Assembly (NCBI GenBank): GCA_021158055.1
Contig: JAGGVJ010000045.1
Coordinates: forward strand, 1 to 55,376
DNA: 55,376 nt
Reading direction: 5' to 3'
Source: Candidatus Iainarchaeum sp.
GTDB taxonomy: Archaea > Iainarchaeota > Iainarchaeia > JAGGVJ01
In this document: one piece after another, positions 14,887 to 55,376 of the stretch
How the letters are laid out: each line of letters begins with the position of its first letter
Numbering within the stretch: the first letter of the stretch is position 1
Program-made: the position numbers and the translations under genes
Notes under the pieces: model-generated
The model's input: only the letters and a program-made list of their open reading frames with translations
Database searches by the model: none
Told to the model about the DNA's origin: nothing

Positions 14887-15984
14887 ATGTATGCATACCT
14901 CACGCTCTTTCTGACAACAATCTACCTTGCCGCAGCAAGCTATTCAGACATCAAAACCAGGTTTGTCAAAAACAAACTCACTTACTCAATGACTGCACTC
15001 GGATTCCTGATCCATGCAACCCAAAGCATTCTTGAATCAAACCCGCAACCCCTCATGTTCTCAATTGCCGCCGCAACCACAGCATACGTTTTTGTTTACT
15101 TTCTCTGGAGGCTCGGCGTGTTTGCAGGGGGAGACGCAAAACTCATAGTCGGCATCGCAGCAATGCTTCCGACCCACCCGTTTTCAGCTTACCCGTCACT
15201 CACGAACCCGCTGCTTGAAATCACCACTGCAACGGCATATCCCTTGTTCTGGGCGACCGTGACAGCAATGAGCTTTATCTCAATCGCCCCATTCATACTG
15301 ATCTACTGCGCATACCATTCAATTCGGCTCAAAAAAACAGGCCTTCATATGCTTTCAAAAAAACCGTTTCTTGACGCAATGCTTTTAACCGGGTGGACAA
15401 CAATCTCTTTTCTTTCAAACCTTCCCTGGTTTATTGTGATTCCTGGAATCTTCGCGGTTTTTGCAGCAAACTCAAAAATCAAAACCCCTGTTCTTCCCAT
15501 TGTGTTGATTTCAACAGGGTTGTTTTTGGCGCTTGAGCTGACAGTGCAGGTTTTAGCCCCGACAATTTTCCTGCTTTACACATTTGATCTCGGCAAAAAG
15601 TTTTACAAAACCACAAGCAAACACGTGCTGTCACAGGAAAAAAAAATAAGCGAACTTGAAGAAGGAGACATAATCAGTGAAGAAGTGTTTTTTGAAGACA
15701 ACCGGCTTGTCAAAAGAAAACACGATTTTTTTGAACCAATAAAACTTCTTCTTTCAAACAACAAGGAAAAACTGGCAAAACTCAACTCAAGGCAATGGAT
15801 TGCAAACCCAAAAAGGGCAGCCGGACTTACAGAAGAAGAGCTCGCAAAATTAAACGAGCTCTCAAAAAAAGGACTCATTAACTCACTCACCGTGAAAAAG
15901 TCAGTTCCCTTCACACCCGCAATATTTATAGGGTTCCTGTTATCTATGATAATTGGAGATTTCTTATGGCTTGTGATAAAATGA
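14887..15984 (+). CDS. Archaeal type IV prepilin peptidase (A24 family)
   Basis: A membrane aspartyl protease that removes class III signal peptides from the pilins encoded around it. The first catalytic aspartate is D21 in SYSDIKTR and the second is D83 in FAGGDAKL, the GxGD-type motif. About six or more hydrophobic segments are visible. The 365 residues exceed a minimal A24 domain, and the C-terminal third (from about residue 240) is a charged cytoplasmic region (KISELEEGDIISEEVFF, AAGLTEEELAKLNEL) followed by a final helix. A paralog with the same architecture lies at 48167-49306. The stop overlaps the next pilin gene. Confidence 0.9.
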   Translation: MYAYLTLFLTTIYLAAASYSDIKTRFVKNKLTYSMTALGFLIHATQSILESNPQPLMFSIAAATTAYVFVYFLWRLGVFAGGDAKLIVGIAAMLPTHPFSAYPSLTNPLLEITTATAYPLFWATVTAMSFISIAPFILIYCAYHSIRLKKTGLHMLSKKPFLDAMLLTGWTTISFLSNLPWFIVIPGIFAVFAANSKIKTPVLPIVLISTGLFLALELTVQVLAPTIFLLYTFDLGKKFYKTTSKHVLSQEKKISELEEGDIISEEVFFEDNRLVKRKHDFFEPIKLLLSNNKEKLAKLNSRQWIANPKRAAGLTEEELAKLNELSKKGLINSLTVKKSVPFTPAIFIGFLLSMIIGDFLWLVIK

Positions 15985-26928: not shown

Positions 26929-27050
26929 GTGAACTACCCCGCCCTTATGGATGGGGCTTCCTGATTCATAGAAAAAACTTGCTGTTTGCTTGTACAACAA
27001 ACAGTAGAGGTGTTGTCTCCAACAGGCTTGGATTCGGACAGTTCCTGCCC
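26929..27050 (-). ncRNA. Probable omega RNA scaffold overlapping tnpB 3' end
   Basis: In this family the guide RNA is made from the last part of tnpB through the right-end hairpin, and the guide is the flanking DNA after GTTCAC. Here the scaffold would end at 26929 and the guide would begin ATTCACGTAATGATG on the minus strand. The 5' limit is a guess. The call rests on position and the hairpin only. Confidence 0.4.
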
Positions 27051-28157
27051 TAGTTTCAATATGTTTAGCGAAGCGTTAGTATCCCTGTCAAGCACTAACC
27101 CACAATTGCATTTGTGAGTTCGCACTGCTAATGATTTCTTGACTATTTCTCCGCAATTGCTGCATCGTTGTGATGTGTTTCTTGGATTGACTGATTCAGA
27201 AACCAAAGATTTCTGAATATTACAGAATCCCGCGGGATTCTGTAATTTTACAACCCTGCCACCGGCACTTTCAGCCACGTAACCAAGTTTTTCTAAAAAG
27301 TTTCCCCAGGACACATCGTTTATTGACTTTGCCAAGCAATGGTTTTTAACCATGTTTTTTATGTTCAAATCCTCAACACAGATAAAACCGTATCTTTTGA
27401 CTAAATCATTGCTTAGTTTCCACGCAAAGTCATCTCTGATATTTATTATTCTTTCATCAACCACAGCAATCTTGACTCTTTTTTTGTTCCGGTTTTTGCT
27501 TTGCTTCATTGTCTTGCTGAAGTTTCTGTTTAATCGTTTTCTTTTCTTTGCAAAGTATTTCAACGGTTTAGGGTGTTCAACAAACTCATTATCACTTGTT
27601 GCAATGAAATAATTCAACCCCAAATCCAAACCCACTTCTTTATCTGTAGTTGTCTTTTTGTTATCAGTTGGGTTTGCACAAACCACTGTTGCAAAATATT
27701 TTCCCGTCTTTGCTTTTTTTATTGTAAGTGTTTTAGCATTACCTGTTATTTCCCTGTGGTATTTAGTGTTTAGCCAGCCAACTTTAGGAAAAAATGTTTT
27801 CTTGCCTATATTTTCAGGGTTATTGACTTGAGGCATTGTAATGCTTCTGTTTGCCCCGAACTTTTTATATCTCGGAAAACCTTTCTTCCTTGCGTTTTCC
27901 TTTACTCTCCTGAAAAAGTTTCTGAAACCCTTGTCCACCCTGTCCGCAACGTTTTGCACTACCTGAGAATGGGTTTCTTTAGTGCCTTTCACTTCTGAAT
28001 ACAAGTGTTTTCTCCCTAAATTTGCATTGTATTGATTATGAGCAAGTTTTTTCAGGGCAAGCAGTTCATTGAATGTTTTTCTGCAAAACTCTATTTGTTT
28101 GTCTATTTCTGTGGCTTGTGCCTTTGAAGGATAAACCCTGTACCTGTACGCTTTCAT
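26934..28157 (-). CDS. tnpB: TnpB RNA-guided nuclease of IS200/IS605 family
   Basis: The protein is about 407 residues when started at MKAYRYRVYPSKAQ, the standard TnpB beginning (an in-frame ATG at 28178 would add seven residues). RuvC catalytic residues look intact: the first Asp in EVGLDLGLNYF, the Glu in FICVEDLNIKNM and the last Asp in DRDTNASLNIL. The zinc finger is SQRCSNCGEIVKKS...HKCNCG. TnpB proteins cut DNA guided by an RNA from the element end. The complete frame and catalytic residues suggest it is active. Confidence 0.93.
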   Translation of the reverse strand: MKAYRYRVYPSKAQATEIDKQIEFCRKTFNELLALKKLAHNQYNANLGRKHLYSEVKGTKETHSQVVQNVADRVDKGFRNFFRRVKENARKKGFPRYKKFGANRSITMPQVNNPENIGKKTFFPKVGWLNTKYHREITGNAKTLTIKKAKTGKYFATVVCANPTDNKKTTTDKEVGLDLGLNYFIATSDNEFVEHPKPLKYFAKKRKRLNRNFSKTMKQSKNRNKKRVKIAVVDERIINIRDDFAWKLSNDLVKRYGFICVEDLNIKNMVKNHCLAKSINDVSWGNFLEKLGYVAESAGGRVVKLQNPAGFCNIQKSLVSESVNPRNTSQRCSNCGEIVKKSLAVRTHKCNCGLVLDRDTNASLNILKLGQELSESKPVGDNTSTVCCTSKQQVFSMNQEAPSIRAG

Positions 28158-28244
28158 TACACCCATAACAATACCCATGTCTTATGTGTCTTATATATCA
28201 TATATTCCTATCCCCTCCCTTTCAGAAGGGGACTTACGAAAAGG

Positions 28245-42615: not shown

Positions 42616-42996
42616 TTACCTAAACCCGGCTTCCAAAACCACCTCCTTGAGCACCCCAGAAGAATCAGCAAGCAACCTTGATTCCACTGCACAAAATCCA
42701 CACGAACCATTTGAAACAACAACGCCGTCAAACTCAAAACAGTATACAAGTTCTGGATTAACCAAAAAGAAAACCTTGTCAAGATTTTCTTTTATCCTTT
42801 CCCTTCTTGAAAAAGCCAAATCCTCAAAAAGACCGTTTTCCTCAAGAGCAGTCAAAGCATCAGAAACCATAATCTGAAGGATCTCTTTATCATGCAGCAC
42901 ATTCTCCTGAAACGAAAAAGTTGACGCAACAACCAAAAAAGAAACCAATGCCAAAAGCAACAGCGATGATTCAATTGAATAAATTACACCTTTCAT
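42616..42996 (-). CDS. Minor pilin-like protein (cluster 2, last gene)
   Basis: A 126-residue protein with an N-terminal helix directly after MKG (MKGVIYSIESSLLLLALVSF) and an external domain with a compact cysteine group (YCFEF, SCGFCAVE). It overlaps the upstream gene by 4 bases (ATGA). The start resembles a prepilin leader with a very short basic part. Confidence 0.72.
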   Translation of the reverse strand: MKGVIYSIESSLLLLALVSFLVVASTFSFQENVLHDKEILQIMVSDALTALEENGLFEDLAFSRRERIKENLDKVFFLVNPELVYCFEFDGVVVSNGSCGFCAVESRLLADSSGVLKEVVLEAGFR

Positions 42997-43730
42997 TCAC
43001 ACACCCCCACCCTCAAAACCCCGACACCCACATCGCTTTCGGTTTTAACAGAAACAATCCTTGAAACAACCACACAATCACCACTCCAACCGGCTTCTTT
43101 TTCAGCAAATCCCTTGTTTTCAGCGCAGTACTCACGCGGAAAACACACCGAAACCAAATCAGACTCCACACTCACCGCAAGCTCTTTTCCAGTATCCAAC
43201 ACATCATTTAACATTGCTGAATCAAGCGACTCAAGAAAAACAACCCTTTTTTCAGGAAGAAAAACAACCGACTCTTTCACCTGACGCTTCAACGAATCAT
43301 AAAAAGCAAGACCAAACCTGTCAGGAAACCCAGTCCAGTCAACAGGGTGGCCAGGATCATTCAAAAACAGCTCGGAAACAGAAAACGCCACACGCTGCCT
43401 TTCAACTGTCTTTTGCCAAACCAAAGCCCACCCTTCAAAACCCGAAACAAACGCAACCGTGTAAAAAAGCATAAGCATCACCAACATCGAAAAAACAAGA
43501 GAATCCAAAAGCATTGCCTGGCCCCTTTTGAAACCTGCTTTGCTTCCGGTTCCGATCTTGATTTTGGGGTTTCGTTTGGTTCCAGCCATGGTTTTATAAT
43601 CAAAAAGCGTGAGAGCAAAAGGCGTGAAAATAAAAGTTAACAAAAACTGTAAGGGAAATAAAGTTTTTCCCTTTCTGAAAACTGAAGCAAACCCAGCAAC
43701 CAGCATCAAAAACGCCGAAATCTTTTGCAT
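42993..43730 (-). CDS. Minor pilin-like protein (cluster 2, gene 3)
   Basis: The core FKRGQAMLLDSLVFSMLVMLM resembles the KRGQLFSIDL protein of cluster 1, and an external domain of about 170 residues with three cysteines follows. The start is uncertain. The ATG at 43730 overlaps the upstream stop (TGATG), like the other junctions in this operon, but adds about 65 residues with extra hydrophobic stretches before KRGQ. The ATG at 43589 would place KRGQ near the N-terminus as in a prepilin but leaves a 140-base gap. I used the coupled start. Confidence 0.62.
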   Translation of the reverse strand: MQKISAFLMLVAGFASVFRKGKTLFPLQFLLTFIFTPFALTLFDYKTMAGTKRNPKIKIGTGSKAGFKRGQAMLLDSLVFSMLVMLMLFYTVAFVSGFEGWALVWQKTVERQRVAFSVSELFLNDPGHPVDWTGFPDRFGLAFYDSLKRQVKESVVFLPEKRVVFLESLDSAMLNDVLDTGKELAVSVESDLVSVCFPREYCAENKGFAEKEAGWSGDCVVVSRIVSVKTESDVGVGVLRVGVCE

Positions 43731-44107
43731 CAGCAAAACACCTCTGCTTCGTACGGGCAATACGTTTCTATGTTTTTTTGGTCAGAAGCAGCTAACGCCA
43801 CAGTAAACTTCACCGGTTTTCCTGTCTCGTCGCAAACCCTGTTTTTTTCACACACGCTCCAATCCAGGCTGATTTTCTGTGCATTGCTTTCATTGCCGTG
43901 CAGCTCAAGAAAACAACCCTTGCCGCACACCGCAATCGCATCCAGCCTGACTGCGGTTTCTTCAAATGCCAGGTAAAGTTCTTTTTCGCTTGCGTGTTGT
44001 TTTGCGTGGCTGAAGAACTGATTTTGGGACTCAAGCGCAAACCCTGTTGCAAGCAATACAATGACAATTGAAAAAAGGGCTTCAATTGTTATCTGGCCCT
44101 GCTTCAA
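43730..44107 (-). CDS. Type IV pilin-like protein (cluster 2, gene 2)
   Basis: MKQGQITIEALFSIVIVLLA is a clear class III signal peptide with G/Q cleavage, glutamate 5 and one helix. The external domain of about 95 residues has six cysteines (VCGKGCF, SVCEKNRVC, TYCPYEAEVFC), likely disulfides. It overlaps the upstream gene by 4 bases. This is the canonical pilin of the reverse cluster. Confidence 0.82.
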   Translation of the reverse strand: MKQGQITIEALFSIVIVLLATGFALESQNQFFSHAKQHASEKELYLAFEETAVRLDAIAVCGKGCFLELHGNESNAQKISLDWSVCEKNRVCDETGKPVKFTVALAASDQKNIETYCPYEAEVFC

Positions 44108-44811
44108 AGAACCAACTCCTCAATCAACTGCAGCGCGGTTTTTTTCACAACCAGGGTGTAGCCTGTTGGAAAAATCACGGTTTTTGTGAGAGTTGAATTG
44201 CCTGACTTTGCAGTGATTGTCGCTCCAAGAACAAGCCCCTTGTGCTCTGCCAAAACGAACTCTTGCGCAACAGGGTTTGAAATCTTTTTTTCTTCACCCA
44301 ATTCAAGGATTTTTAAAGCAAGCTCTTTGTTATCTACAAAAGCCAAAAGATAACTTTTCAGGGAATGGTTTCTTACAGCAATTATTTTCTCAATGTCACT
44401 TTTTTTAATCGGCTGTTTTTGAAGCGCAGTTGTGTTTTCGTAACTTTCAGGGTTTAATCCAGATGAAAAATAACCGGCACCCGTTTGTTTTTTCACCCAC
44501 AAATCGACTTCAACTGCCCCAGAATACTTTTTTTCAAGTTCTTGTTCCAGGCAAAGTATTTTTTCAGCCAGAGCAATTCGTTCCAAACCAGGCTCTGTTA
44601 AAAGCTGGTGTGAAAGAACGGAATAAACAAGAGATTCAAAGGAATGCAAGATGTCTTTTTTTACCTGTTTTGCTTTCATTTCCAAAAAAATAGCCTGATC
44701 TGCCTCAACAAGCCTTGAGTGCATGACTGCGTTTGACGCGATTAAAACAAGCAACCCTGCAACGATTACAGTCACTACAATAAAAGAAGTTATCCCTTTT
44801 CTCAAATCCAT
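44104..44811 (-). CDS. Minor pilin-like membrane protein (cluster 2, gene 1)
   Basis: A 235-residue protein from the ATG at 44811 (MDLRKGITSFIVVTVIVAG), with one helix after RKG. A helical stretch (EMKAKQVKKDILHSFESL) precedes a C-terminal beta domain (LGATITAKSGNSTLTKTVIF). An upstream in-frame start at 44874 would put 21 extra residues before the helix and is less likely. First gene of the four-gene set. Confidence 0.7.
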   Translation of the reverse strand: MDLRKGITSFIVVTVIVAGLLVLIASNAVMHSRLVEADQAIFLEMKAKQVKKDILHSFESLVYSVLSHQLLTEPGLERIALAEKILCLEQELEKKYSGAVEVDLWVKKQTGAGYFSSGLNPESYENTTALQKQPIKKSDIEKIIAVRNHSLKSYLLAFVDNKELALKILELGEEKKISNPVAQEFVLAEHKGLVLGATITAKSGNSTLTKTVIFPTGYTLVVKKTALQLIEELVL

Positions 44812-45223
44812 CCCCGCAAATAACTCACGGTTAAAACAAGTAATATATTTTTCGATTGCGGCTGCAAAAAGCAAAGTGATTATTGGCGTGATTAGCGATT
44901 ATGGGTAGTGCTTAGTGTTTTTTGATGGTGCTTAACAGCAGGGAGTGCCTTTTCAATCGCTGTCAAAACATACAATCATAGAATATATCCTGTTTTGAAG
45001 CTGTTTTGCTGAATTTCAAAGGTTTTAACAAAAAATACTTTTATTTTCAGATAACTTTAATAAAGCCCTTTTTCATAAATTATAATTACTAAGATGCAAT
45101 CCAATCAAACCAATCAATTTGGTCAAACCTGAGTATCTTACATTTTTTTTAATTAACACACATCTTTTATGATTTTTTATTAATACTCTTATTTTTTAAT
45201 CCGCAGATTAACTGGTAGATTTG
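44812..45223. other. AT-rich intergenic stretch with divergent promoters
   Basis: About 410 bases separate the minus-strand pilin operon from the plus-strand coiled-coil gene. The sequence is A/T-rich with several TTTAAT and TTAATTAA strings (for example around 45145-45155) that could be promoter elements. I find no convincing ORF, RNA or repeat. It marks the boundary between the pilin region and the radical SAM island. Confidence 0.4.
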
Positions 45224-47194: not shown

Positions 47195-48052
47195 CTACAA
47201 AGGGTTCAACTCTTCTGCCCCGACAAATTTTTTATAGCTTCTCCAGATTCCCGAGCAATCAGAAAAATATTTGCATTGATTGCATTCCTCTTTGAAAAAC
47301 AACCTTTTCCTTTCTGTAGTGACTCCTTCTGCGTATCCCCTGAACTTCTCTGAAAGCACGCATTTTGGAAAATGATACAAGATAAAATCCAGCTCATTTT
47401 CCTTTAATACCGAACACGCTTTCTCTAAAAAGGGAACAACTTCTGAATATCTTACAATCAACTGTTTTTTGTTCAATGCAGCCGATCCCACGATATTAAA
47501 ATAAAGAAAAACAACATTGGACACACTCGGCATGTTCAAGGAAATAAATTTCGCTATTCTGGGCAACGCCTCATAATTAAGATTATGCACAACTACCCTG
47601 ATCTCAACTTCCACCCCCAACCTTAACAGGTTTTGAATCCCTTCAATGGTCTGGATAAAACTCCCTTTCGCTTGAGTGATCTTTTCAAAAAGTTCCTCTT
47701 CCCCGGCATGTAAGGGCACTGCCACACTCTTTAAACCCAAATCTGTCATTTTTTTTGAAAAATCAGCGTAACAGAACATTCTTGCATTGGTGAGCAGTCT
47801 CTTCTTGGCTTTCGGAAACCTTTTTTCAAGGCAGCTCATTATATCAAATATGTCAGATCTTATTGTCGGTTCACCTCCCCCTGTGACGCTGATCTCTGAC
47901 ACGTTTTCATCAAGCGAGTTTATCATTTGTTTAATGTCCTCTGTTGAAGGCCCTTCTTTAATTTCACACTGCGTCTTTGAATAACCCAACCTCACAATCG
48001 GACACATGACACAATTATTATTACATGAAAAACAAATATTAAGATCAATCAT
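47195..48052 (-). CDS. Short radical SAM enzyme (rSAM-2)
   Basis: A 285-residue protein with CNNNCVMC near residue 9, SVTGGGEPTIRSD as the GGEP motif and the C-terminal set PKCVLSEKF then CNQCKYFSDCSG, followed by the shared Y-x5-G-x2-E-L-x-P end. It starts at the ATG at 48052, four bases after the stop of an 18-codon ORF (48057-48113), so translation could be coupled. GGATGA overlaps that stop and may act as its ribosome site. Confidence 0.83.
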   Translation of the reverse strand: MIDLNICFSCNNNCVMCPIVRLGYSKTQCEIKEGPSTEDIKQMINSLDENVSEISVTGGGEPTIRSDIFDIMSCLEKRFPKAKKRLLTNARMFCYADFSKKMTDLGLKSVAVPLHAGEEELFEKITQAKGSFIQTIEGIQNLLRLGVEVEIRVVVHNLNYEALPRIAKFISLNMPSVSNVVFLYFNIVGSAALNKKQLIVRYSEVVPFLEKACSVLKENELDFILYHFPKCVLSEKFRGYAEGVTTERKRLFFKEECNQCKYFSDCSGIWRSYKKFVGAEELNPL

Positions 48053-48166: not shown

Positions 48167-49306
48167 TCAAGCAAAAAAATTAACAAGCAAATACGTCAAA
48201 AAATTTCCTTTGAAAAAATAAGTCAAAAGAACCCCCACAAAAAGCACCGGTGCAAAAGATATCGTTTCCTGAACTTTTATCCTGTCTGAATCAAGCAAAC
48301 CATTCTCCAGCCTGTAAAGCATCTCGCGAATATCCCATTCAGCTAAACCACCTGCTCTTCGCAAAAAAAGCACATTGTGATACCTTCGGAAGTCATCTGG
48401 AGATGAATCAAAAAGTATTTCCTTACCTTTTCCAGACATTGATTTTTCAAGAATCACTTTTTTGTAATGGTGGCGGCCTTTTTTGTTATCAATATCTTTT
48501 ATTCTCTCAAATGTTTCAACAGGCATCATTCCCGGCGCAAGATCAATTATTCTTTTTTCAATAGTAAAATTCCTTTTTGTAAGAGAAATAAGAATTAAAT
48601 AACCAAAAACGAACAATACAAATTTTTCAAAAAAACCTATCCAAAAAGAATAAGAAAGCATAACAGAACCTGCAAAAACAATTCTGATAATCACAAAAAT
48701 TGCCATCACAACATCTGTTTTCGAAGCAAACAATTTCTTTATTTTCGGAAAGATAATTATCATGACCGCCAGATTCAAAAAAGGATCAGATGGCATCCCA
48801 ATAAACAAAATAAACTGATTAAATACCCAGTAAAACCCCAGTAAATAAAGAACTTTTGAAACTATCCTTTCAAACGAAAAAATGTTTTTTACCTCCTGAG
48901 CCAATGTTTCCATCCTGAAAGAACGCACATTAAAAATTGTCAACGCGAAAAAAGCCAGCAAAAAACTGTTTATGAATATGGCAAACGAAGGAAAAAAAGA
49001 TATTAATTTGAAGTCATAAATACTGGTCGGAATAAGCAACGCATATGCTGTCATCAACTTGGCATCACCGGCAGGCCAAAAACCAACATACCACAATCCA
49101 AAGCCAAGAATAAACATGATCATTACATTTAGCAGGATATCAAATAAAAGCACGGGTTTTTGAAAAACCAAAAAAGAAGTAATAATTACGCCCGCTAAAA
49201 GAGCAATCATTATACATTTGTTGCTTACTTTTTTGTATTTTATATCATAAAAAGAAGTTACTAACCCAAAAATAAACACAAAGAAAAAATCAATCATAAC
49301 CAACAA
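48167..49306 (-). CDS. Second A24-type prepilin peptidase
   Basis: A 379-residue polytopic protein with the A24 catalytic aspartates at D21 (SFYDIKYKK) and D81 (WPAGDAKL). It has the same layout as the 14887-15984 peptidase, including a cytoplasmic C-terminal region (AGGLAEWDIREMLYRLENGLL) and a last helix. Its nearest neighbours are radical SAM genes, not pilins. It may process pilins elsewhere or other leader-bearing proteins. The sequence is more AT-rich than the pilus-locus copy. Confidence 0.86.
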   Translation of the reverse strand: MLVMIDFFFVFIFGLVTSFYDIKYKKVSNKCIMIALLAGVIITSFLVFQKPVLLFDILLNVMIMFILGFGLWYVGFWPAGDAKLMTAYALLIPTSIYDFKLISFFPSFAIFINSFLLAFFALTIFNVRSFRMETLAQEVKNIFSFERIVSKVLYLLGFYWVFNQFILFIGMPSDPFLNLAVMIIIFPKIKKLFASKTDVVMAIFVIIRIVFAGSVMLSYSFWIGFFEKFVLFVFGYLILISLTKRNFTIEKRIIDLAPGMMPVETFERIKDIDNKKGRHHYKKVILEKSMSGKGKEILFDSSPDDFRRYHNVLFLRRAGGLAEWDIREMLYRLENGLLDSDRIKVQETISFAPVLFVGVLLTYFFKGNFLTYLLVNFFA

Positions 49307-49772: not shown

Positions 49773-49844
49773 ATGCTGTCAAAAAACATATCGTCAGCGG
49801 GTCGAAGTATCTCTGCACCTGCAATTGATAAAAAACAAAAGTGA
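49773..49844 (+). CDS. Candidate 23-residue peptide upstream of rSAM-3
   Basis: A short ORF begins MLSKNISSAGRSIS and ends in a lysine-rich tail (DKKQK). Its stop lies 7 bases before the radical SAM start at 49852. A TATA-like string (GTATATTA near 49743-49750) is about 26 bases before the ATG, so the transcript could begin at this ORF. There is no good ribosome site. It has no cysteine. It is comparable in position to the ORF before rSAM-2, but the support is weaker. Confidence 0.3.
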   Translation: MLSKNISSAGRSISAPAIDKKQK

Positions 49845-49851
49845 ATCCAGG

Positions 49852-50697
49852 ATGATAAAACGTTTCAACATCAATACCGGCACAATGTGCAACAATAACT
49901 GTCGTTTTTGTGTGATTGATCACAACGAAAAACCACGGAACACTTGTTTTGAAGATATAGAAAAAGAACTTGAAGTATTCAGAGAAAAAGGCATAAGAGA
50001 AATAGCCTTCGTTGGCGGCGAGGTTACAATTCGCAGAGATATCATTGAAATGATTTCGCTTGCGAAAAAACTTGGTTACGCTAAAATCCGGATTGTGAGC
50101 AATGGGAGGATGTATTGCTATCCTGATTTTTTGGAAAAAATCATCAAAGCAGGAGTGAACGGATTTACTGTCTCAATACACGCTCACAATGCGTCACTTG
50201 GGGATTACCTGTCAAGATCCAAAGGCAGTTTCACGCAGACAACAACAGGAATAAAAAACCTACGCAAAATGGGTTTCATTCCAAACATAAATATTGTGAT
50301 AAACAAATTAAACTATAAGCACCTTCCGGAAATCATCTCACTTTTAAATAGCTTTGACATAAACAACATACGCATGTCAATCATAAACCCTGAAGGGAAT
50401 GCAATGACTAATTTCAATGAAGTAGTGCCTACGCTGACTGAAATTACACCATATATAAAAAAATCAGCAAAAATCTGTGACAAAAACAACATCAGCCTAA
50501 CCATAAACTCCCTTCCTTTTTGCATACTGCCGGAGTGCAACAGATACAAAGACGAACCTTACAATATCTTAAACAAAATAAACATAAAACCCGAAAAATG
50601 CAATTCATGCATATATTTTGAGGTTTGTGACGGACTTCGGAAGGAATACGCTAAAAAATTCGGGTTTAAAGAAATAATGCCAATAAAAAATAACTAG
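49852..50697 (+). CDS. Short radical SAM enzyme (rSAM-3)
   Basis: A 281-residue protein starting MIKRFNINTGTMCNNNCRFC (the SAM-cluster motif is CNNNCRFC). The GGEP region is altered to FVGGEVTIRRD, with V where P is usual. The C-terminal cysteines are PFCILPEC then CNSCIYFEVCDG, followed by the shared Y-x5-G-x2-E-I-x-P end. I chose the ATG at 49852 because the other four paralogs start 9-16 residues before the first Cys. A TTG at 49825 is an alternative. Confidence 0.84.
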   Translation: MIKRFNINTGTMCNNNCRFCVIDHNEKPRNTCFEDIEKELEVFREKGIREIAFVGGEVTIRRDIIEMISLAKKLGYAKIRIVSNGRMYCYPDFLEKIIKAGVNGFTVSIHAHNASLGDYLSRSKGSFTQTTTGIKNLRKMGFIPNINIVINKLNYKHLPEIISLLNSFDINNIRMSIINPEGNAMTNFNEVVPTLTEITPYIKKSAKICDKNNISLTINSLPFCILPECNRYKDEPYNILNKINIKPEKCNSCIYFEVCDGLRKEYAKKFGFKEIMPIKNN

Positions 50698-50786: not shown

Positions 50787-51731
50787 TTATTGAATCGGCC
50801 TCAGTTCATCAGTGCCATATATATCCGCATAACTTTTCCAAACCCCCAGACAATGAGCATCCTCCACGCACAACTTACACGAAGGAGATTTTACTTTATT
50901 CCTCATCACACTAACAACAGAAGAATGAAGCGGACTTTTTGGATCAGAAGAAAGTATCTTATATTCATCACAATTTTTCAAATATTTATAAAAATAACAC
51001 AATGGCACACCGCAAAAAGGATTGGAAAAACCAATGCCTTTCTTTTCACATTTTTCTGCGGCTTGATCCAGATAACGTTCAACTTCTGATATCTTCGGGA
51101 CAATCCACTTGTTTTTTTGAGGACTGCCGTAAGGTTGTACAAAAGAAAATACAATCCTGCCAATTGAACCTGAAAATTCTTTGTCGATAAATTCCACAAA
51201 CTCGGGAAGAATCCTGTAATTAACAGAGTTTACAACAATATTCAAATCAACCGGAACACCCTCATGAATAAGGTTGTGAATTCCCGCAATAGTTTTTTTG
51301 AATGTGCCGGGGCTTCTTGTCAAAAAATCAGACATCTCCTCCAAATGCGAATGCAATGATATAAACGCACTTGCCAAGCCAGCTGAGACAAGGGCTTTCG
51401 TATAACTTTTATATGCAAATCTTATCGCGTTTGATTGAACGACAATCTTAACACCTTTTGAGTGGGCAAAAGAAATCAAATCAAATAAATCATCCCTTAT
51501 TGTCGGTTCGCCTCCTGTAAAGGTTATTTGGGTGCAACCTGTGCTAAGAAAACTTTTCAGCTCATTTAAAAGAAACTGCGGTTTCGGATTCTCAAATTGA
51601 GAATTACAAAATTCAACTGTTTTTTCTTGGCTAATCTGCATAATCTCTGATGTCTTATTTCCACCTTTGACATTGCAAAAAAAACAATTCTGGTTACAAG
51701 CCAACCCCGTCCTGAAAATATTATCCACCAT
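50787..51731 (-). CDS. Short radical SAM enzyme (rSAM-4)
   Basis: A 314-residue protein with CNQNCFFC near residue 13, ITFTGGEPTIRDD and the C-terminal cysteines PLCYFYKYLKNC then CKLCVEDAHCLG, ending in the shared motif (WKSYADIYGTDELRPIQ). The start is one base after the rSAM-5 stop, so rSAM-5 and rSAM-4 form a tightly coupled pair. Confidence 0.84.
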   Translation of the reverse strand: MVDNIFRTGLACNQNCFFCNVKGGNKTSEIMQISQEKTVEFCNSQFENPKPQFLLNELKSFLSTGCTQITFTGGEPTIRDDLFDLISFAHSKGVKIVVQSNAIRFAYKSYTKALVSAGLASAFISLHSHLEEMSDFLTRSPGTFKKTIAGIHNLIHEGVPVDLNIVVNSVNYRILPEFVEFIDKEFSGSIGRIVFSFVQPYGSPQKNKWIVPKISEVERYLDQAAEKCEKKGIGFSNPFCGVPLCYFYKYLKNCDEYKILSSDPKSPLHSSVVSVMRNKVKSPSCKLCVEDAHCLGVWKSYADIYGTDELRPIQ

Positions 51732-51732
51732 A

Positions 51733-52641
51733 TTACCCTATTGGCTGAAACTCTTCCCACCCTCTCTTTTGAGGATACTCACACCAAGGACCCTCACACT
51801 GACTGTCATAAATGCATTTGCTGCACAACGGTCCCTTTGATTTTCCCATATTTCTTCGCACTTCCGTAAAATTTCTGATATTGGAACTTACACTGCGTAT
51901 CTCTGTTTCAGGTATGAATCTCTCTGAGCAAAAAGATTCATAACCTTTCATAAAACAAAACGGGTATGCTTCAGCCATCACAGAAACACCCGCGTTTATA
52001 CCAATATCAAGAGCACGGTGAACAAACGGTTCTACTTTGCTTTTTAGCGGAACAATGCTATCAAAATATTTGAATGCATTTCCCTGAGGATGCACAAAAG
52101 CAAACTGAAACTGATCAACCCCAAGATTAACAAGCAACTTGGCTATATCAGGCAAAAATTCATAGTTTGGTTTTGTGATTACAGTATTTGAAGCGACATA
52201 CAACCCCAAAGATTTTGCGTTCACAATCCCTTGAGAGGTCTGCTTAAAGCTGCCTGGTGAACGGGTCAGGTAATCATGAAGTTGGGAATTGTGCCCATGA
52301 AGAGCAGGGGATATTTCGGTTGCCCCGCAATCCACAAGTTTCCTTACAAATGATTTATAATAAAGCATTCTTCCGTTTGTCTGAATCTGAATTATTTCAT
52401 AATCAAGAGCCCTTGCAAAAGAGACTATTTCAAATACATCAGGGCGAATAGTGACCTCGCCCCCTGTAAAAACCACTTCTCCAGCACCGTTTTCTTTTCC
52501 TACTGCAAGGTCTTTTTTTATCTCTTCAGTTGTTTTATCAAGGCTTTTTCCCGAATTTCGGTTTTCTGCGATAACGCAAAAACGACAGTTATTGTTACAT
52601 TTAAATCCAACTTTTAAGTCAAGCCGGTCCTTTTTTTTCAT
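51733..52641 (-). CDS. Short radical SAM enzyme (rSAM-5)
   Basis: A 302-residue protein from the ATG at 52641 (MKKKDRLDLKVGFKCNNNC). The SAM motif is CNNNCRFC. The GGEP region reads VVFTGGEVTIRPD, with V for P as in rSAM-3. The C-terminal cysteines are PFCFMKGYESFC then CSKCIYDSQCEG, ending WCEYPQKRGWEEFQPIG. It is divergently transcribed from the hxs operon about 130 bases away and may share its control. An in-frame extension to 52731 is possible but would run through that promoter region. Confidence 0.84.
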   Translation of the reverse strand: MKKKDRLDLKVGFKCNNNCRFCVIAENRNSGKSLDKTTEEIKKDLAVGKENGAGEVVFTGGEVTIRPDVFEIVSFARALDYEIIQIQTNGRMLYYKSFVRKLVDCGATEISPALHGHNSQLHDYLTRSPGSFKQTSQGIVNAKSLGLYVASNTVITKPNYEFLPDIAKLLVNLGVDQFQFAFVHPQGNAFKYFDSIVPLKSKVEPFVHRALDIGINAGVSVMAEAYPFCFMKGYESFCSERFIPETEIRSVSSNIRNFTEVRRNMGKSKGPLCSKCIYDSQCEGPWCEYPQKRGWEEFQPIG

Positions 52642-52731
52642 AAAGTTATTTAAACATTCAAAACATATTAACTTTGTGTAAAATAACGATGTCAAGTTGT
52701 TATTTTTAAATTTTGAGATTGCCGCCGTCAT

Positions 52732-52771: not shown

Positions 52772-53113
52772 ATGCCTGAAGAAAGTACTTTTCAAATGCT
52801 TGATAATGTAAAGATTGACAGCAAAAAAATGAACGCACACATAACTGTAAATCCGAAAATACACCCACCATCAACAATATACTCTTCATGTTACACCCTC
52901 TTTGATAAAAATTATGTTTTCATAACTGAATCTGACGATAAATTCAAAATAGAAATAACCCCAAAAAAAGATACTTCAATAAAAGATTTCGGACTCACCT
53001 GCGGCAATTTCAACAACCTGCTCATTACACAAACAAGCAACCTGTTTTTCATATCCAAAAACAAGAAACTAAATAACATCATCCTAAAAGGGGTTGAAAA
53101 AGCACATATTTAA
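52772..53113 (+). CDS. HxsD-like protein 1
   Basis: A 113-residue small soluble protein. The pattern is a beta strand (AHITVNPKIHPP), a helix region (TIYSSCYTLFDKNYVFI), a strand pair (FKIEITPKKD) and a C-terminal helix (GNFNNLLITQTSNLFFISKNKKLNNIIL). This matches the layout of HxsD, the small partner protein of His-Xaa-Ser radical SAM systems, whose C-terminal half carries an N-x-L-L-type helix. The match is by pattern, adjacency to HxsB and small size, so it is moderately supported. It was started at the ATG at 52772, just after the promoter. Confidence 0.6.
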   Translation: MPEESTFQMLDNVKIDSKKMNAHITVNPKIHPPSTIYSSCYTLFDKNYVFITESDDKFKIEITPKKDTSIKDFGLTCGNFNNLLITQTSNLFFISKNKKLNNIILKGVEKAHI

Positions 53114-53181
53114 CCAACTAATACACTAAATCATATTCATCTCTTGGATGAATATTACCCATCAACAGGAAAAGGGATTAA

Positions 53182-53448
53182 ATGAAAGAAATTGAAATTG
53201 ATGAAAACAATAAAAAAGCAACAATCTCGTTCACAAAAAAAATATATTTCATTGAAGCAGTTATAAAAACAATTAACAATTTTCGAGAATTCTGCGACGT
53301 AACACTTGCAGAAACAGATGATTCAATCCAGATAACAATTGAACCAAAATCCAACACCCTGCCCCTAACTGAAATCGCAAATGAATTTTGCAACCACGTT
53401 TTAAATGAATCAAAGAATACATATGATGACAGTCAAAAGGTGATTTAA
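53182..53448 (+). CDS. HxsD-like protein 2
   Basis: An 88-residue paralog of the preceding gene. It starts KEIEIDENNKKATISFTKKIYFIEAVIKT, continues with DDSIQITIEPKS and ends with the helix LTEIANEFCNHVLNESKN, the equivalent of the HxsD C-terminal helix. AAAAGGGA is 4-5 bases before the ATG. Its stop directly abuts the hxsB start with no gap, as expected for a partner subunit. Two HxsD-like genes in one locus is unusual. Confidence 0.65.
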   Translation: MKEIEIDENNKKATISFTKKIYFIEAVIKTINNFREFCDVTLAETDDSIQITIEPKSNTLPLTEIANEFCNHVLNESKNTYDDSQKVI

Positions 53449-54894
53449 CTGACTTTTAGTTTTTTTGACACTCCAATCAACCTTAAATATATCATCAACG
53501 ATTACACGGCAAAAAAAATAGGTGACAACCAATATTTCGTGTCAGTAAAACACGGCCCGTGGGCAATACTTGATTCAGAAGATTTTGATCTTTTGAAAAC
53601 CGGCCGGTTAAACGAAAAAAAAGAACTCCTTGATTTTTTACACGAAAAACACATTGTCTTAAGTGAAAACAACATCAATAAAGCAGCACATATCCTGAGT
53701 GAAAGATGCAGTCATATTACTAACGGCGTAACTCTTCACATTGTTGTCCCGACACTGAGATGCACCAACAAATGCGTCTACTGCCATGCCAAATCAAAAG
53801 ACGAGAACGCAAAGGGATATGATATGGATGAGGACACTGCAAAACAAACTGTTGACTTTATATTTGACACTCCTTCAAACAATCTCACTATTGAATTCCA
53901 GGGAGGAGAACCGCTTCTGAACTTTGATATTGTGAGATATATCGTGGACTACGCAAAACTGCTTGGAAAGGAAAAAAACAAAGAAATCCAGTTTGCTCTT
54001 GTCTCAAACTTTGCAAAAATGGACAAAGACATAGCTGACTTTATCATCTCAAACAGAATCGGACTTAACACATCTCTTGACGGCCCGAAAGAAGTCCATG
54101 ACAAAAACAGAAAATATAAGGGCAGGGGCACATATGAAACAGTGGTTTATTGGATTGATTACCTGCTCAAGGAACGAAACTACAAGTCCCTTTCAGCTTT
54201 ACCGACGCCTTCAAGACATTCGCTTGATTATCCAAAAGAAATAGTTGATGAATACATAGAAAGAGGCTTCGACAGGATTTTCATACGCTACCTGAACCGC
54301 GCCGGATTTGCCGAACAGGACTGGGATAAAATTGGATACACTGCCGATGAATTTTTGGATTTTTGGCTAAAGACATTGGATTATATAATTGAATTAAACA
54401 AGCAAAAAGTCGAAATCAGAGAAAGGTGGACTGAAACAATACTTTCAAAACTGATAAATCCAATACACGGCGGATACACCTGCTTGGGATCCCCTTGTGG
54501 AGCGACACTCATCCAGTTAGCTTACGAATCAAACGGAGACATTTACTCTTGCGACGAATCAAGATCTGTTGAATTATTCAAGATAGGGAACGTAAAAGAA
54601 CAAAGATACAGTGATGTAATCACATCAGAACAGGTAAAAACAATCATTTCGCTTTCTTCAGGACTAATGAACAGTTGCGATTCGTGTGTTTGGCATCCTT
54701 ACTGCGGAGCGTGCCTTGTCAGTTTATACAATTCAACCGGAAGCTTCAATTCCAACCCGCGGCAGGACGTGGGGTGCTTAATTAAAAGCGGCTCTATCGA
54801 ACAGATAATAAAAAAACTTGCACAAAAAGATGAAGACACCGACATATTACTTGGGTGGCTGGAAAAGAAAAGATTAATATACAAAATAAAGTAA
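53449..54894 (+). CDS. hxsB: HxsB-type radical SAM/SPASM maturase, CTG start
   Basis: A 481-residue radical SAM enzyme expected to modify the His-Xaa-Ser protein encoded next. The N-terminal part (YTAKKIGDNQYFVSVKHGPW, DSEDFDLLKTGRL) matches the HxsB leader domain. The SAM motif CTNKCVYC lies near residues 105-112, and EFQGGEPLLNFDIV and SLDGPKEVHDKNRKYKG follow. The C-terminal SPASM region has CLGSPCGATLIQL, YSCDESR and CDSCVWHPYCGAC. No ATG lies near the conserved beginning; a GTG at 53539 would cut off 30 conserved-looking residues. CTG at 53449 has AAAAGGTGA 5 bases upstream and abuts the hxsD2 stop. Confidence 0.86.
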   Translation: MTFSFFDTPINLKYIINDYTAKKIGDNQYFVSVKHGPWAILDSEDFDLLKTGRLNEKKELLDFLHEKHIVLSENNINKAAHILSERCSHITNGVTLHIVVPTLRCTNKCVYCHAKSKDENAKGYDMDEDTAKQTVDFIFDTPSNNLTIEFQGGEPLLNFDIVRYIVDYAKLLGKEKNKEIQFALVSNFAKMDKDIADFIISNRIGLNTSLDGPKEVHDKNRKYKGRGTYETVVYWIDYLLKERNYKSLSALPTPSRHSLDYPKEIVDEYIERGFDRIFIRYLNRAGFAEQDWDKIGYTADEFLDFWLKTLDYIIELNKQKVEIRERWTETILSKLINPIHGGYTCLGSPCGATLIQLAYESNGDIYSCDESRSVELFKIGNVKEQRYSDVITSEQVKTIISLSSGLMNSCDSCVWHPYCGACLVSLYNSTGSFNSNPRQDVGCLIKSGSIEQIIKKLAQKDEDTDILLGWLEKKRLIYKIK

Positions 54895-54926
54895 ATGTGT
54901 TTACAACTGATAAAAGATAGATATTC

Positions 54927-55376
54927 ATGAAAAAACTGCAACTCCCAAAAATAAAAAAAACAATTGAATCATTCCTGTGTGAAGAAACTGCAAAACTCTC
55001 AAAAGAACAAGTGGTTACAACAGGACTCAAACTGTCAATAATAGCTGGAGCTGCAACACTTATTACTTCAGACAGCCACGCATGCAACTGTGATTGCGTA
55101 AGTGTATGTCACTGCAAACACGCGAGTCATGACAATTATGACGGCCCGCATGAACCTGACGCAGTAAGTGGTGAAGGCATGGAAATGGATTACAACTCGG
55201 CTTGTGCCTCAAAACTGTCTGCATTCCACACCCATTACGATCCAGAAAATTATAGCTGTTCTTGCAAAAACGATTGCGGTTGCAACTCATATCACAATTC
55301 CCACGGAAGCCACTCAAGCCACGGAAGCCACGGAAGCCACGGAAGCCACGGAAGCCACTCAAGCCACAGCAACAGT
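54927..55376 (+). CDS. hxsA: HxsA-like His-Xaa-Ser repeat protein, truncated by window end
   Basis: The 150 visible residues run off the window. A basic/acidic leader (MKKLQLPKIKKTIESFLCEE) and TAKLSKEQVV precede a hydrophobic segment (LKLSIIAGAATLI). A Cys-rich middle follows with C-x-C strings (CNCDCVSVCHC, CSCKNDCGC). The tail has repeated H-G-S/H-S-S triplets. This is the substrate layout of Hxs systems, in which the repeated region is thought to be modified by HxsB (with HxsC where present). The two C-x-C clusters are an addition I do not associate with the bacterial proteins. The chemistry of modification is unknown. Confidence 0.78.
   Translation, partial: MKKLQLPKIKKTIESFLCEETAKLSKEQVVTTGLKLSIIAGAATLITSDSHACNCDCVSVCHCKHASHDNYDGPHEPDAVSGEGMEMDYNSACASKLSAFHTHYDPENYSCSCKNDCGCNSYHNSHGSHSSHGSHGSHGSHGSHSSHSNS
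55308..55367 (+). repeat. 9-bp coding repeat for His-Gly-Ser triplets
   Basis: CACGGAAGC and CACTCAAGC units repeat in frame, encoding HGS and HSS, with nearly identical codons throughout. The window ends within or just after this array, so the total number is unknown. Identical codons suggest recent expansion by slippage. Confidence 0.9.

What the first reader, a model, noticed from the sequence alone, without database searches (positions are those of the whole stretch)
52772..55376. Archaeal His-Xaa-Ser radical SAM system with two HxsD-like proteins and no visible HxsC
Seen: a compact four-gene unit of two small paralogous proteins, a large radical SAM/SPASM enzyme abutting the second, and a secreted-looking His-Gly-Ser repeat protein. 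Known: bacterial Hxs systems consist of HxsA (repeat protein), HxsB and HxsC (radical SAM maturases) and HxsD. Inference: this is an archaeal version with a duplicated HxsD and no HxsC in the window. One of the five short radical SAM enzymes next door might replace HxsC. The modification and function of Hxs products are not established, which makes an archaeal form valuable.
Basis: partly seen in the sequence, partly recalled or inferred. Interest (0 to 1): 0.88.

Follow-up and report, generated by a model that had tools for sequence, protein, structure and literature searches.

The report
Archaeal His-Xaa-Ser system with dedicated peptidase
An archaeon carries a poorly understood system in which radical enzymes are thought to alter a secreted histidine-serine repeat protein; all the usual parts are there, including the one thought missing, plus a membrane protease that travels with this version of the system in archaea and gut bacteria and hints at how its product is released or displayed.

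Summary
The four-gene unit is real: hxsD, an hxsD-like gene, hxsB and an HxsA-type repeat protein. HxsB passes its NCBI cut-off (435.5 vs 370 bits). "No visible HxsC" is wrong: 47195-48052(-) scores 194 bits on the HxsC model (next best window enzyme 112) and groups with bacterial HxsC. The two HxsD proteins are no local duplication: the pair is adjacent in 23 archaeal loci, and NCBI already has an "HxsD-like" family. The repeat protein looks complete: the window's last 11 bases equal the start of contig C5, where a stop codon and a 667-aa radical SAM gene follow.

Beyond the finding: the A24 prepilin-type peptidase directly upstream of hxsC (48167-49306) belongs to a subfamily found in 23 of 32 HxsB-bearing genomes and in none of 258 others, usually touching hxsD or hxsB. 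It goes with a distinctive acidic HxsA leader and a full set of HxsB SPASM cysteines, also in the only two bacterial loci that have it. This suggests two Hxs subtypes. Best model: radical modification of the HxS tail in the cytoplasm, then leader processing by the dedicated peptidase. Chemistry and product function remain untested; literature coverage was open-access only.

The parts
52772..53113 (+). hxsD (first small protein, 113 aa)
   Evidence: TIGR03976 29.8 bits, below cut-off 50; orthologues in the same gene position score 49.9 and 54.4; archaeal HxsD profile 124 bits, this sequence being in the seed
53182..53448 (+). hxsD-like gene (second small protein, 88 aa)
   Evidence: NF038315 56.4 bits, cut-off 41
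53449..54894 (+). hxsB, radical SAM/SPASM maturase, probable CTG start
   Evidence: TIGR03978 435.5 bits, cut-off 370; start aligned with relatives
54927..55376 (+). hxsA-type repeat protein, 150 aa; stop codon lies just past the window on contig C5
   Evidence: 8 tandem HxS; HxsA4 38.2 and HxsA3 31.8 bits, both below cut-off; leader shared with many archaeal HxsA
47195..48052 (-). hxsC (radical SAM, 285 aa, lacks the N-terminal extension of bacterial HxsC)
   Evidence: TIGR03977 194 bits, cut-off 267.9; best plasmid matches annotated hxsC; tree support 93 with bacterial HxsC
48167..49306 (-). A24 prepilin-type membrane peptidase, Hxs-linked subfamily
   Evidence: Pfam A24 33.0 bits, cut-off 26.5; both aspartates; linkage and co-occurrence
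51733..52731 (-). rS5, radical SAM enzyme of a conserved HxsB-linked family
   Evidence: 48-57% identity across 10 members; 12 of 14 genomes with it have HxsB
50787..51731 (-). rS4, radical SAM enzyme of the HxsC-like archaeal expansion
49825..50697 (+). rS3, radical SAM enzyme of the HxsC-like archaeal expansion (75% identical to a copy on contig C29)
46236..47138 (+). rS1, radical SAM enzyme of the HxsC-like archaeal expansion
55366..55376 (.). 11-base overlap with the start of contig C5 (L077), which goes on with a 667-aa double-SPASM radical SAM enzyme
   Evidence: homologues of 618-653 aa lie downstream of hxsA in three relatives

Best explanation
This is a complete His-Xaa-Ser (Hxs) system of the HxsA3-like subtype in a small-genome archaeon. 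Shown by sequence: HxsB and HxsC homologues, a conserved pair of HxsD-type proteins, an HxsA with a tandem HxS tail, further radical SAM enzymes, and an Hxs-linked A24 prepilin-type peptidase with both catalytic aspartates. Inferred: HxsA is made with a short basic then acidic leader in front of a hydrophobic helix; the HxsD pair, perhaps as a heterodimer, helps present it to HxsB and HxsC; these use 5'-deoxyadenosyl radicals to modify the His/Ser-rich tail in the cytoplasm; the A24 peptidase then cuts the leader near the conserved E-E-x-G/A motif at the inner membrane face as HxsA is inserted or exported, leaving the modified tail outside. Extra radical SAM enzymes (rS5, the 667-aa enzyme on C5) add lineage-specific steps.
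For: HxsB and HxsD-like over cut-off. HxsC by model score, tblastn and tree. hxsD and hxsD-like adjacent in 23 of 27 cases, usually followed by hxsB, in two by an HxsC-type gene. A24 subfamily in 23 of 32 HxsB genomes and 0 of 258 others, touching or within 100 bases of hxsD or hxsB in 19 of the 22 other archaeal loci that carry it. Peptidase and leader go together: 22 of 23 HxsA from A24-bearing loci or genomes have the acidic leader by a fixed pattern, the 23rd (FLLSEEGK) missing it only by spacing, against 4 of 30 without A24. The only two bacterial loci with A24 (L123, L132) are the only two bacterial ones with this leader and with the full HxsB SPASM cysteine set.
Against: No chemistry, cleavage or export was tested. 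The HxsA leader hits no Pfam pilin family. Three f42 archaea have a similar leader (DESA/EEKA) but no A24 of this subfamily. The window's own leader has EETA in place of EExG. The window's HxsC, HxsD and HxsA fall below NCBI cut-offs, and a tree separating archaeal from bacterial HxsC is not rejected (p 0.127). The A24 profile was trained on Hxs-linked members, so its score gap is partly built in; the gene adjacency is not.
Confidence: 0.58

Rival explanations
1. The A24 peptidase serves ordinary archaeal pilins or another target; HxsA is exported by Sec and cut by signal peptidase I at the AxA-like sites after the hydrophobic stretch, as expected for plasmid-type bacterial HxsA.
For: Several HxsA proteins have A-x-A just before the His-rich tail. 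Pilin-like genes lie about 3 kb away in the window (43730-44107). Plasmid-type HxsA has plain Sec-like signals and no A24.
Against: The genome has a separate housekeeping A24 peptidase at 14887-15984. The Hxs-linked subfamily is absent from 258 genomes without HxsB, many of which have other A24 peptidases, and it sits against hxsD or hxsB in most loci.
Confidence: 0.27
2. 47195-48052 is not HxsC in function; it is one more member of the archaeal HxsC-like expansion, and the HxsC step is lost or done by the 667-aa enzyme or rS5.
For: 194 bits is below the 267.9 cut-off. A tree with all archaeal members apart from bacterial HxsC is not rejected (p 0.127). rS5 is more often found with HxsB than this gene is.
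Against: It alone among the five prefers the HxsC model over HxsC4, joins bacterial HxsC with support 93, shares all seven cluster cysteines with them, and its orthologues lie beside HxsA or HxsD pairs in relatives. In L123 and L132 an HxsC gene also follows the A24 gene directly.
Confidence: 0.2
3. HxsA is an unmodified metal-binding (His-rich) surface protein, and the radical SAM enzymes act on other substrates encoded nearby.
For: His-rich tails bind metals (general knowledge). The number of radical SAM enzymes exceeds the number of known targets.
Against: hxsA is the gene directly after hxsB here and in many archaeal loci, and its presence beside HxsB holds across two domains.
Confidence: 0.1

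Closest known systems
HxsA3-type His-Xaa-Ser system (NCBIfam NF038309 with TIGR03976, NF038315, TIGR03977, TIGR03978), e.g. human-gut scaffold MT837156 (L123)
   Same: Two HxsD-type proteins, hxsC directly after an A24 peptidase gene, HxsB with full SPASM cysteines, HxsA with acidic leader; in L123 all five Hxs proteins pass NCBI cut-offs
   Different: Archaeal host; hxsC on the far side of the cluster and without the N-terminal extension; four more HxsC-like enzymes; a 667-aa enzyme after hxsA
Plasmid- and phage-borne bacterial Hxs systems (hxsD-hxsB-hxsC with hxsA or hxsA2)
   Same: Homologous HxsB, HxsC, HxsD and HxS repeats
   Different: One HxsD, Sec-type HxsA signal, no A24 peptidase, HxsB without the SPASM cysteines at 368 and 422
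SCIFF and PapB-type ranthipeptide maturases
   Same: HxsB shares the radical SAM/SPASM architecture: PapB model 159 bits, SCIFF model 139 bits, both below cut-off; best solved relative 5wgg, E 5.5e-44
   Different: Different partner proteins and a His-Xaa-Ser rather than Cys-rich target
Archaeal prepilin peptidases (A24)
   Same: A24 domain over the Pfam cut-off with both aspartates
   Different: Separate subfamily tied to hxsB genomes; the housekeeping enzyme is a second gene at 14887-15984

Membership tests
His-Xaa-Ser (Hxs) system | HxsB maturase over the curated cut-off of TIGR03978 | tested here: met
   435.5 vs 370 bits
His-Xaa-Ser (Hxs) system | HxsC maturase over the cut-off of TIGR03977 | tested here: inconclusive
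   194 vs 267.9 bits, but groups with bacterial HxsC at support 93
His-Xaa-Ser (Hxs) system | HxsD over the cut-off of TIGR03976 | tested here: inconclusive
   29.8 vs 50 bits; syntenic orthologues 49.9 and 54.4
HxsD-like protein family NF038315 | score over cut-off | tested here: met
   56.4 vs 41 bits
HxsA3 / HxsA4 repeat protein families | score over cut-off of NF038309 or NF038313 | tested here: not met
   31.8 vs 65 and 38.2 vs 55 bits; so called HxsA-type here, not HxsA3 or HxsA4
His-Xaa-Ser (Hxs) system | tandem HxS repeat protein beside the maturases | tested here: met
   8 tandem triplets, 32 bases after hxsB
His-Xaa-Ser (Hxs) system | radical modification of the repeat protein | not testable with these tools
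   needs expression and mass spectrometry
HxsC4 (NF038332) | score over cut-off 500 | tested here: not met
   best window enzyme 181.8 bits (rS5)
A24 prepilin peptidase | Pfam A24 domain over cut-off and two catalytic aspartates | tested here: met
   33.0 vs 26.5 bits; D20 and D80 invariant in 19 homologues
Prepilin / pilin (for HxsA) | match to a pilin family | tested here: not met
   no Pfam pilin hit for seven HxsA proteins

The most novel reading that the evidence does not exclude
HxsA of this subtype is a pilin-like protein: its leader is a prepilin-type signal cut by a dedicated A24 peptidase, its hydrophobic helix anchors or polymerises it, and radical SAM enzymes chemically alter the exposed His-Xaa-Ser tail, giving a radical-modified surface fibre or anchored tail shared by archaea and gut bacteria.
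Probability: 0.22. Interest if true: 0.88.

Novelty: new variant of a known kind. Interest (0 to 1): 0.64.

Why it matters
No paper found here reports the product or function of an Hxs system. A prepilin-type peptidase that travels with one subtype is a concrete handle on where HxsA goes after modification and where it may be cut. The split by peptidase, leader and HxsB cysteines also predicts two chemically different HxsB types, which iron content and product masses can test. A review of leader-removing proteases for modified peptides (PMC10885120) contains none of the terms prepilin, aspartic, aspartyl or A24.

Tried and rejected
HxsC on another contig: not needed, it is in the window. An HxS continuation elsewhere in the genome: the only other own-genome HxsA4 match (C36, 67 aa with a stop) looks unrelated, and C5 gives the stop codon directly. 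The 647- and 682-aa CxxxCxxC proteins after hxsA in L097 and L072 read as beta-propeller-like repeat proteins, not radical SAM enzymes. HxsD fold search: no PDB match at E <= 0.001; weak recurrent hits to the Rpb11/Rpo11 dimerisation fold (best E 0.006) are only a hint of heterodimer formation. HxsD profiles find no solved relative by sequence. Host: not named by the tools; the nearest named HxsB is from Candidatus Aenigmatarchaeota (50% identity), and window genes (archaeal Nre, RFC, CDC48, GatD, RLI) are archaeal. Literature: no functional study of Hxs found; only open-access papers are held. Structure jobs used only window proteins and loci from the search for related loci, so the alignments were four deep.

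Full report
Observation. The window is the whole of contig C28 (55,376 bases) of a 1.15 Mb, 45-contig genome; its gene content is archaeal. HxsB scores 435.5 bits on its NCBI model (cut-off 370), the second small protein 56.4 on the HxsD-like model (cut-off 41), and the first 29.8 on HxsD (cut-off 50), with orthologues in the same position at 49.9 and 54.4. The repeat protein ends in eight consecutive His-Xaa-Ser triplets, where shuffles of its residues give at most three. HxsB most likely starts at CTG 53449: this codon directly follows the stop of the HxsD-like gene and aligns with the start Met of relatives.

Contig end. The last 11 bases of the window equal the first 11 of contig C5. Reading on, HxsA meets a stop codon at once, so the protein is 150 aa. 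C5 then carries a 667-aa radical SAM enzyme with two SPASM-like cysteine regions, a 341-aa HxsC-like enzyme and a 784-aa tandem one. In three relatives a 618-653-aa homologue of the 667-aa enzyme also lies downstream of hxsA, which supports the join. It matches no NCBI family over cut-off. Full-length members occur in four of 290 genomes, all with HxsB.

HxsC is present. Of the five short radical SAM enzymes in the window, 47195-48052 scores 194 bits on the HxsC model and 101 on HxsC4; the other four score 90-112 on HxsC and 109-182 on HxsC4. Its best plasmid matches are annotated hxsC. In a 75-row tree it joins ten bacterial HxsC and five archaeal orthologues with support 93, apart from the other four; the alternative is not rejected, p 0.127. 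Orthologues over 280 bits occur in 8 genomes, all with HxsB. The assignment is well supported but below the curated cut-off.

Two HxsD proteins. They are homologous and adjacent in 23 of 27 cases with an archaeal HxsD, mostly just before hxsB and in two before an HxsC-type gene. A human-gut scaffold (L123) has the same pair, both over NCBI cut-offs. This is an old and known variation, not a duplication here. AlphaFold models share a beta-beta-alpha-beta-beta-alpha order (pLDDT 75 and 87) but find no significant PDB match. A third HxsD lies on contig C29.

A dedicated peptidase. Directly upstream of hxsC, on the same strand, is an A24 prepilin-type membrane peptidase (48167-49306). Homologues lie in 24 of 37 HxsB loci, and in 19 of the 22 archaeal ones other than the window they touch or lie within 100 bases of hxsD or hxsB. 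Over 290 related genomes the subfamily (over 180 bits) is in 23 of 32 with HxsB and 0 of 258 without; a split copy in one more HxsB genome scores 150 and other A24 peptidases at most 146. The 23 genomes cover 9 of the 14 families with HxsB, so close relatedness alone does not explain it. The profile was trained on linked members, so the score gap is partly by construction, but gene adjacency is independent evidence. Both aspartates are invariant in 19 homologues, the window's and bacterial L123 included. The genome has a separate housekeeping A24 enzyme at 14887-15984. Neither the window's nor the L123 peptidase matches an NCBI family.

Leader and HxsB cysteines. HxsA of peptidase-bearing systems has a leader of the form P-x-I-K-K-x-I-x-S-F-L-x-E-E-x-G-x-I-S/T-K before a hydrophobic stretch. 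By a fixed pattern 22 of 23 have it (the exception, FLLSEEGK, only by spacing) against 4 of 30 without the peptidase. Plasmid-type HxsA has plain Sec-like signals. HxsB of archaea keeps cysteines at 350, 368 and 422 (34, 35 and 34 of 35); 17 plasmid- or phage-borne bacterial HxsB have 1, 0 and 0. Two bacterial loci, L123 and L132, have the peptidase, the acidic leader and all three cysteines together; the other viral-contig HxsB lack 368 and 422. These traits define two subtypes that cut across the archaea/bacteria divide. Three f42 archaea break the full correlation: similar leader and cysteines, but no peptidase of this subfamily. The samples are not phylogenetically independent, so the p values overstate significance.

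Other enzymes. rS5 (51733-52731) belongs to a well-conserved family (48-57% identity) found in 14 genomes, 12 with HxsB, and lies just upstream of hxsB in five related genomes. The slot after hxsA is filled by different radical SAM families in different lineages: the 667-aa type here, AhbD/StsB-like in f13, PapB-like in f42. This suggests lineage-specific extra modifications (inference).

Mechanism. The best model is cytoplasmic radical modification of the HxS tail by HxsB and HxsC with the HxsD pair as helper, then leader removal by the A24 peptidase at membrane insertion or export. The first half follows from family membership and gene order; the peptidase step is inferred from co-occurrence, adjacency and the leader. 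HxsA matches no pilin family, so a pilin-like fate is a possibility, not a finding.

Novelty. The Hxs system, the HxsD-like family and HxsA3 are known to NCBI's curators. The dedicated A24 peptidase, the subtype split and the 667-aa enzyme were not found in the open-access papers searched, which is a limited search. I rate it a new variant of a known kind.

Noticed in passing
window 53449: HxsB appears to start with CTG immediately after the stop codon of the HxsD-like gene; automatic callers would start at GTG 53539 and lose 30 residues. It could also be a base error for ATG.
   Followed up: partly
L078 (contig C29) 9647-10096 and 11467-15042: A third HxsD with the conserved DPxGIxKPW tail, an HxsC4-like enzyme 75% identical to rS3, and an 841-aa protein that looks like fused HxsC-like domains.
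   Followed up: partly
L077 (contig C5) 3148-5499: 784-aa protein with a second HxsC-like half that lacks the CxxxCxxC motif: possibly an enzyme/pseudo-enzyme fusion.
   Followed up: no
L075 8138-8494: Small protein ending in WDH-type repeats, directly upstream of HxsC-like and HxsB genes: possibly an Hxs target with a different repeat.
   Followed up: no
L056 4068-5738: 557-aa HxsA-type protein with the usual leader, long Ser-Thr-Thr repeats and a large C-terminal part instead of HxS runs.
   Followed up: no
L123 (MT837156): A record filed as 'Bacteriophage sp.' from human faeces carries a FabZ-like gene and a complete Hxs cluster with A24 peptidase; it looks like bacterial chromosome.
   Followed up: partly
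HxsB of 35 archaeal and 17 plasmid/phage-borne bacterial loci: The bacterial HxsB lack SPASM cysteines 368 and 422 (and 350 in 16 of 17) that archaeal HxsB keep.
   Followed up: yes
window 43730-44107 (-) and neighbours 42993-44874: Pilin-like small proteins (KQGQITIEALFSIVIVLLATG) about 3 kb from the Hxs cluster.
   Followed up: no
window 26934-28178 (-): IS605 OrfB/TnpB-type (Cas12f-like) protein.
   Followed up: no
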